A program made the translations under genes and the position numbers. From assembly GCA_018829985.1 (NCBI GenBank), contig JAHJSU010000251.1:1-43247 (forward strand): 43,247 nucleotides of DNA, in the 5' to 3' direction. This DNA comes from Elusimicrobiota bacterium. Lineage in GTDB: Bacteria; Elusimicrobiota; Elusimicrobia; Elusimicrobiales; UBA9959. Below are positions 38,025 through 38,566 of this stretch, piece after piece (position 1 is the stretch's first letter; each line of letters opens with the position of its first letter). Under the pieces are notes generated by a model. It was not told where the DNA came from and ran no database searches. It saw only the letters and a list, made by a program, of their open reading frames with translations.

Positions 38025-38566
38025 TCAATACAACATTAAAGGTGTTTCTTCAATCTTGCCGATTACCGGATTCACTTTAATGCCCAACATCTCTAATGTA
38101 ACGCAGCCTATTAAAACTTTGTCTATGATATCGGATATCCAGATTGTCTGAATATCCTCTTTCTTGCCGATAGTGATAATAATTCTGCCCTTGTCTATTT
38201 CAATATTCCCCGCGCCGGTTTCAACCTGTTCCCTCATAAATGTTTGAATGCCTAATTCATCAGCAAGAACTCTTGGTATGGTGGTTAAAGTAGCGCCGGC
38301 ATCTATCAATCCTTTCACATCTTTAGCCCTGGTTTTATCGGTGTTTGCTATATGCACATCAATCGTAACTACTCAGGCCTGTCTCGCGCAAAGCCGCAAA
38401 GCTCGCAAAGAAAAGTCCAAACCCCGAATTATAAGCCATTTACAAATTGTATTATGCATCCTTTCTTTGCGCCTTTGCGCCTTTGCGCGAGTATCAGTTT
38501 TGATTAAATTCCTGATAACTTTATCCCGCTACCTGAGCAGTTACCATTAATCCATGTATGACCCAT
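38025..38566 (-). pseudogene. Clan AA aspartic-protease-like gene interrupted by E10
   Basis: GLIDAGATLTTIPRVLADELGI; removal of E10 plus one 8-bp copy gives GAGGAG-N9-ATG GGT CAT ACA TGG ATT GAT/AAT GTG CAT ATA GCA AAC = MGHTWI(D/N)VHIAN... Confidence 0.85.
38365..38544. mobile_element. MITE-like element E10 (180 bp), core type 'CTCGCGCAAAGCCGCAAAGCTCGCAAAG'
   Basis: Ends GTAACTACTCAGG...CCTGAGCAGTTAC; flanks CATCAATC (38357-38364) / CATTAATC (38545-38552) match 7/8. Confidence 0.9.

What the first reader, a model, noticed from the sequence alone, without database searches (positions are those of the whole stretch)
38025..38566. Aspartic-protease-like gene split by E10, with a frame-perfect empty site reconstructable by eye
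On the minus strand, GAGGAGACAAAAAT-ATG GGT CAT ACA TGG ATT AAT precedes the element, and GAT GTG CAT ATA GCA AAC... follows it. Collapsing the 8-bp duplication gives continuous MGHTWI(D/N)VHIANTDKTRAKDVKGLIDAGATLTTIP. With the element present, translation from the native start appears to stop inside it (MGHTWINGNCSGSGIKLSGI*). The ORF track's start at 38357 is probably an artefact.
Basis: seen in the sequence. Interest (0 to 1): 0.8.

Follow-up and report, generated by a model that had tools for sequence, protein, structure and literature searches.

The report
Tiny transposon splits small protease gene
A 180-base non-autonomous transposon jumped into the seventh codon of a small retroviral-type protease gene in an uncultured Elusimicrobiota bacterium; a sister species still carries the uninterrupted gene, and the transposon is a shrunken copy of a larger element that carries a nuclease-like gene of unknown function.

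Summary
E10 (38365-38544) is a 180-bp MITE flanked by an 8-bp target duplication (CATCAATC/CATTAATC, 7/8). It sits in a clan-AA aspartic protease gene on the minus strand (38566 to 38025), and translation stops inside it after 20 codons. A congeneric genome (G001) has the natural empty allele with a single GATTGATG copy and an intact 117-aa protein; 43 of 46 aligned rows begin with GH at positions 2-3. Synteny continues on both sides, so this is not a mis-assembly. None of the window elements compared is present at the matching G001 site.

The terminal repeat GTAACTACTCAG occurs 271 times in this Elusimicrobiota genome; 29 of 39 paired elements carry a 7-8/8 duplication (chance 0.15). The same ends bound a 2.4-kb IS66 element (DruA + TnpC) in the congener and an IS66 element with a perfect 8-bp duplication in Deinococcus grandis. 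IS66-type trans-mobilisation is the best mechanism, although no IS66 transposase was found in this genome.

Unexpected: E10 is an internal-deletion derivative of a 544-bp element carrying a GxxExxY (PD-(D/E)XK) gene. GxxExxY genes in about 78 species of many phyla sit between inverted word arrays, for which I found no published description.

The parts
38025..38357 (-). 3' part of the clan-AA aspartic protease gene (110 codons + stop), open from GTG 38357
   Evidence: Pfam PF13975 29.0 bits and PF13650 25.6 bits, both over cut-off; 93% identical to the intact congener protein.
38545..38566 (-). 5' part of the same gene: ATG GGT CAT ACA TGG ATT AAT, split by E10
   Evidence: matches congener L047 1480-1501 with one difference.
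38567..38580 (-). native ribosome-binding region GAGGAGACAAAAAT
   Evidence: identical in congener L047.
38365..38544 (.). E10: 180-bp IS66-type MITE, internal-deletion derivative of a GxxExxY-bearing element
   Evidence: 176/180 identical to C281:6868-7047, which has a perfect duplication GCTACAAG; aligned with the 544-bp C92 long form.
38365..38377 (+). left terminal inverted repeat GTAACTACTCAGG
38532..38544 (-). right terminal inverted repeat GTAACTGCTCAGG
38357..38364 (+). target duplication copy 1, CATCAATC (unmutated; same as the empty site)
38545..38552 (+). target duplication copy 2, CATTAATC (one later substitution)
38504..38506 (-). TAA stop inside E10 that ends translation from the native ATG after 20 codons
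6006..6118 (.). same terminal-repeat family, 113-bp type; duplication GAGAAAAG 8/8; clean empty site in congener
15209..15321 (.). same family, 113-bp type; duplication 7/8; absent in congener
11079..11186 (.). 108-bp MITE of the C15 GxxExxY subfamily; duplication CTTAAATT 8/8
14251..14397 (.). 147-bp relative with GGACAGCTAGACAGCT-type words; duplication 6/8; absent in congener
21970..22077 (.). 108-bp MITE of the C15 GxxExxY subfamily; duplication CCTGTTCC 8/8
28490..28597 (.). 108-bp MITE of the C15 subfamily, nested in a longer repeat-bounded element; duplication GATTTTTA 8/8
31129..31236 (.). 108-bp MITE of the C15 subfamily; duplication TATTAAAC 8/8; clean empty site in congener
35588..35685 (.). 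copy of the C15 subfamily with a damaged right end, no duplication recognised
37052..37161 (.). 110-bp relative with CCACGGAGACACAGAGAACACAGAG words; no duplication recognised

Best explanation
[quoted passage not shown] An IS66 transposase acting in trans most likely recognised its GTAACTACTCAGG ends, moved it, and joined it to a staggered cut 8 bp wide inside codons 6-8 of a 117-codon clan-AA aspartic protease gene. Gap repair produced the 8-bp duplication. Reading from the native start now runs into E10 and stops after 20 codons, so the normal protease is not made; at most a protein restarted at GTG 38357, lacking half of the first strand, could be. E10 itself arose from a 544-bp element with the same ends that carried a GxxExxY (PD-(D/E)XK) gene, by loss of about 360 bp of that gene. 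Shown: the insertion, the duplication, the natural empty allele, the family of such elements, the match to the GxxExxY form, and the same ends on IS66 elements elsewhere. Inferred: that an IS66 TnpC performed the move, the direction of change from long form to E10, and that the protease function is lost.
For: Natural empty allele with one GATTGATG copy in congener G001, synteny kept on both sides. Full-length homologues start MGH. 271 exact ends in the genome, 0 for the reversed control pattern. 25/39 pairs with perfect 8-bp duplications and 29/39 with 7 or more, expected 0.15. Sister copy C281 with a perfect duplication. C92 long form with GxxExxY (TIGR04256 117.6 bits, PF13366 113.9 bits) and perfect duplication CCGGCTTT. 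Congener IS66 element, 2436 bp with PF14236 + PF03050 + PF13005 between GTAACTACTCAG and GTAACTGCCCAG; a 1202-bp deletion derivative with perfect 12-bp ends and an IS66 remnant. Deinococcus grandis pDEGR-2 IS66 with ends GTAACTGCTCAGCAGGG and duplication CGTCGAAT on both sides. IS66 elements make 8-bp duplications: ISPpa5a and ISPpa7 in PMC3281130.
Against: No IS66 transposase is detected in this genome; of 61 related genomes only the congener has one. The congener's IS66 copies have no clean 8-bp duplication, and at least one TnpC frame there looks shifted near its N-terminus. Other IS families also make 8-bp duplications. The E10 duplication is 7/8, not perfect. Loss of protease function is not measured, and the catalytic Thr is already Ala in both congeners, so the gene may have been altered before the insertion.
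Confidence: 0.85

Rival explanations
1. The GxxExxY protein, a PD-(D/E)XK nuclease-like protein, is itself the mobilising enzyme, and E10 is the MITE of a GxxExxY transposon rather than of IS66.
For: E10 and the 108-bp MITEs match deletion derivatives of GxxExxY-bearing elements that moved with 7-8/8 duplications. GxxExxY genes in about 78 species lie between inverted word arrays (median inverted-repeat score 17.25 against 9 for flanks of other loci and 8 for shuffles). C15 relatives L079 and L085 in other phyla carry similar outer ends.
Against: Many elements with the same ends and 8/8 duplications have no GxxExxY-type arrays (113-bp and 104-bp families). IS66 elements own the same ends. GxxExxY loci elsewhere mostly lack GTAAC-type ends and show no general duplication.
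Confidence: 0.1
2. The split is an assembly artefact: two contigs were joined through a repeat.
For: Short repeats break this assembly; many contigs end inside such elements.
Against: Both flanks match one uninterrupted congener locus with an exact 8-bp overlap, and the synteny continues beyond the gene on both sides. Two halves of one gene would not be joined by chance.
Confidence: 0.02
3. The gene is still functional: a protein is made from the GTG at 38357 (or an element-borne start) and works, so the insertion is neutral or regulatory.
For: The 3' reading frame is intact over 110 codons; dN 0.028, dS 0.168 against the congener, though most of that divergence may predate the insertion.
Against: The first strand (residues 4-11) is cut in half; homologues conserve MGH; an in-frame TGA in the terminal repeat lies just upstream and no ribosome-binding site was recognised by eye.
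Confidence: 0.15

Closest known systems
Bacterial MITEs, type II (PMC10969869)
   Same: Short, no transposase, conserved ends, target duplication, high copy number, insertional inactivation of genes; similarity to the putative parent confined to the ends.
   Different: No intact parent found in the same genome; two of the families derive from a GxxExxY-bearing element, not from an IS by simple deletion.
IS66-family insertion sequences (ISPpa5a, ISPpa7 in PMC3281130; IS66 of Deinococcus grandis pDEGR-2, L194)
   Same: 8-bp duplication; D. grandis ends GTAACTGCTCAG (11 of 12 identical to E10's). That IS66 ends typically begin GTAA is from my own knowledge.
   Different: E10 has no TnpA, TnpB or TnpC. 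The congener's element pairs TnpC with a DruA-domain gene (PF14236).
Mobile insertion cassettes (as described in PMC3281130)
   Same: IS-type ends flanking a non-transposase gene: the C15 and C92 forms carry GxxExxY.
   Different: The passenger is a nuclease-like gene of unknown function that occurs across phyla between its own inverted arrays.
Clan-AA, retropepsin-like proteases (Rickettsia conorii protease 5c9f; Ddi1 RVP domains; TIGR03698)
   Same: Predicted fold matches these and retroviral proteases, probability 1.00, TM about 0.6-0.7.
   Different: Sequence is below the TIGR03698 cut-off (32.3 against 57.35); DAG in place of DTG.

Membership tests
MITE | Short element with terminal inverted repeats and no transposase gene | tested here: met
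   180 bp, 13-bp ends with one mismatch, no transposase-sized ORF.
MITE | Target-site duplication of constant length | tested here: met
   8 bp; 29/39 at 7-8/8 against 0.15 expected; E10 itself 7/8.
MITE | Multiple copies in the genome | tested here: met
   271 exact end matches; the E10 subfamily itself has only 2 short copies plus 1 long form.
MITE | Polymorphic presence between close relatives | tested here: met
   Empty site in G001 at E10 and at other window elements.
IS66-derived element | Ends shared with an IS66 element | tested here: met
   G001:C92 and C84; D. grandis L194.
IS66-derived element | 8-bp duplication as in IS66 | tested here: met
   PMC3281130 for IS66.
IS66-derived element | IS66 transposase present in the same genome | tested here: not met
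   PF03050 search of G000: 0 matches; the assembly is fragmented. The claim is therefore 'IS66-type ends', not 'member of IS66'.
IS66-derived element | Moved by IS66 TnpC | not testable with these tools
   Needs a transposition assay.
Clan-AA aspartic protease (interrupted gene) | Retropepsin-like fold and family profile match | tested here: met
   PF13975 and PF13650 over cut-off; fold search.
Clan-AA aspartic protease (interrupted gene) | Catalytic D-T/S-G motif | tested here: not met
   DAG in both congeners; 43 of 46 aligned rows have T, 3 have A.
GxxExxY family (long forms C15, C92) | TIGR04256 / PF13366 match over cut-off | tested here: met
   C92: 117.6 and 113.9 bits; C15: 124.1 bits.

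The most novel reading that the evidence does not exclude
GxxExxY genes form a widespread class of compact selfish elements: a PD-(D/E)XK nuclease-like gene held between inverted arrays of 8-9-base words (for example GCCACNAAGNCACNAAGNCACNAAG), spread over many phyla, which shed gene-less miniatures such as E10. In this lineage such elements were captured between IS66-type ends and amplified by an IS66 transposase. The arrays would be the recognition sites of the GxxExxY protein.
Probability: 0.35. Interest if true: 0.8.

Novelty: new member of a known kind. Interest (0 to 1): 0.42.

Why it matters
The event itself is an ordinary insertional gene disruption, but an unusually well documented one, with a natural empty allele. 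The by-product matters more: it links common, unexplained inverted word arrays of environmental bacterial genomes to a gene family of unknown function (GxxExxY), and shows gene-bearing and gene-less forms moving with a clean 8-bp duplication. That gives a concrete handle for asking what GxxExxY proteins do.

Tried and rejected
IS66 transposase in the own genome: searched, none. GxxExxY arrays as the transposed unit in other species: a duplication test on 59 loci gave 39 with none against 43 expected by re-pairing, with only a small excess at 4-6 bp, so no general duplication. Solved structures by sequence: no match. Cyanobacterial and Chloroflexota IS66 elements showed no comparable ends by the simple inverted-repeat search. 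Published accounts of GxxExxY mobility: two papers hold the word and one holds PF13366, none with it in title or abstract; I did not read them. No held paper pairs DUF4338 or DruA with IS66. Two literature queries failed on syntax. An assembly artefact was considered and rejected on synteny.

Full report
WHAT WAS CLAIMED AND WHAT IS THERE. All of it is in the sequence. On the minus strand the gene starts at ATG 38566 behind GAGGAGACAAAAAT, reads MGHTWIN, enters E10 and stops after 20 codons. The rest, 110 codons, is open from GTG 38357 to the stop at 38025. E10 is 38365-38544, 180 bp, with ends GTAACTACTCAGG and GTAACTGCTCAGG. Its 8-bp flanks are CATCAATC and CATTAATC, equal at 7 of 8 positions.

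THE EMPTY ALLELE EXISTS. A search of 61 related genomes found the gene at 93% identity in the one congener held, G001. Its DNA reads GAGGAGACAAAAATATGGGTCATACATGGATTGATGTGCATATA, without the element and with one copy of GATTGATG. Window and congener align up to 38364 and again from 38545, overlapping by exactly 8 bases in the congener. The mismatch in the duplication is therefore a later change in the copy nearest the start codon, and the ancestral residue is D. Synteny continues on both sides over about 37 kb, which argues strongly against a false join. I did not need to build a reconstructed protein: the natural one is 117 aa. In an alignment of 46 rows, 43 have G and 43 have H at positions 2 and 3.

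THE GENE. It matches PF13975 and PF13650 above cut-off but falls below the TIGR03698 cut-off. A model of the congener's protein (mean pLDDT 88) resembles retropepsin-like proteases, among them Ddi1 domains and the Rickettsia protease 5c9f. E10 falls inside the first strand (residues 4-11). The catalytic motif is DAG in both congeners where 43 of 46 rows have Thr. The gene was under purifying selection for most of its divergence (dN 0.028, dS 0.168), yet the congener is off the family consensus at one strongly conserved site (G107, kept in 42 of 44 other rows). The gene may already have been under weak or altered constraint. It is rare in the order: close copies in 2 of 149 genomes, while similar proteins occur in archaea and unnamed metagenomic bacteria.

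THE ELEMENT FAMILY. The 12-base end GTAACTACTCAG occurs 271 times in the genome and its reversed control 0 times. I paired inward-facing ends in the stretches held: 25 of 39 pairs have identical 8-bp flanks and 29 of 39 match at 7 or 8, against 0.15 expected when flanks are re-paired. The unmatched rest includes some false pairings in nested elements. Of the ten window elements compared, nine fall in stretches whose congener counterpart I could read, and none of these is present there; the sites at 6006, 31129 and 38365 are clean empty sites. For 11079 only the right flank aligned. The congener has only 8 matches to the end, so amplification happened largely in this lineage. The host is Elusimicrobiota by its SecD gene.

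WHAT MOVES IT. The congener carries a 2436-bp element between GTAACTACTCAG and GTAACTGCCCAG encoding a DruA-domain protein and an IS66 transposase, and a 1202-bp derivative with perfect 12-base ends around an IS66 remnant. A distant IS66 element on a Deinococcus grandis plasmid has ends GTAACTGCTCAGCAGGG and an 8/8 duplication CGTCGAAT. IS66 elements are on record with 8-bp duplications (PMC3281130). This makes IS66-type trans-mobilisation the best explanation. Weak points: no IS66 transposase is found in this genome, and the congener's copies lack a clean duplication. Loss after amplification or non-assembly of a repeated gene would both explain this; I cannot separate them.

WHERE E10 COMES FROM. 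A copy at C281 is identical at 176 of 180 positions and has a perfect duplication. A 544-bp element at C92 has the same two ends, a perfect duplication CCGGCTTT, and between them a GxxExxY gene with a frameshift. E10 equals C92 minus about 360 bp. The 108-bp elements of the window relate in the same way to a 475-bp element at C15 with an intact GxxExxY gene and a 7/8 duplication. So two different GxxExxY-bearing units with the same IS66-type ends moved in this genome and each has gene-less miniatures.

THE WIDER PATTERN. In 78 GxxExxY loci from species of many phyla the gene lies between inverted arrays of 8-9-base words; the best inverted repeat between the two flanks has a median score of 17.25, against 9 when flanks of different loci are paired and 8 after shuffling. 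Direct repeats between the flanks are also raised in part of the loci, because the arrays are often nested. These loci mostly lack GTAAC-type ends and show no general target duplication. The arrays are thus a property of GxxExxY loci in general, and the IS66-type ends an addition in some. Whether GxxExxY is a passenger or a mobility factor is open.

VERDICT. Observation confirmed; interpretation supported; an ordinary mechanism with a well supported parent family; the interest lies in the GxxExxY connection.

Noticed in passing
L072 902-1376; L067 1311-1854; L078-L157: GxxExxY (PF13366) genes across many phyla are flanked by inverted arrays of 8-9-base words (GCCACNAAGNCACNAAG..., CTCACGCAAAGGCGCAAAG..., ACCACAGAGGCACAGAG...). 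No published description was found in the library.
   Followed up: partly
L079 around 1460-1930 (Desulfobacteraceae MAG): A close relative of the C15 GxxExxY unit in another phylum has ends GTAACAGTTCAG/GTAATAGTTCAG outside the arrays and near-matching flanks GAAAAAAC/GAAAAAAG, suggesting transfer of the whole unit between phyla.
   Followed up: partly
L183 506-2941 (congener G001:C92): IS66 element in which TnpC is paired with a DruA (PF14236) domain gene; no held paper combines DruA or DUF4338 with IS66.
   Followed up: partly
window 38290-38306; L047 1552-1566: Catalytic DTG is DAG in both congeners, though 43 of 46 aligned rows have Thr.
   Followed up: partly
many G000 contig ends, e.g. 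L051-L058, L020-L045: Dozens of contigs end inside elements of these families, so the MAG's fragmentation is partly caused by them and copy numbers are probably underestimated.
   Followed up: no
window 6124-6208, 17080-17205, 23610-23735, 34749-34867: Another repeat type built of words such as AAGGCTAAAGGATAAAGG with an inverted partner; similar copies occur elsewhere in the congener contig, no GTAAC ends seen.
   Followed up: no
window 28440-28680: Nested elements: a 108-bp MITE inserted (duplication GATTTTTA 8/8) in an outer element with AACGCAGATGACGCAGATG words.
   Followed up: partly
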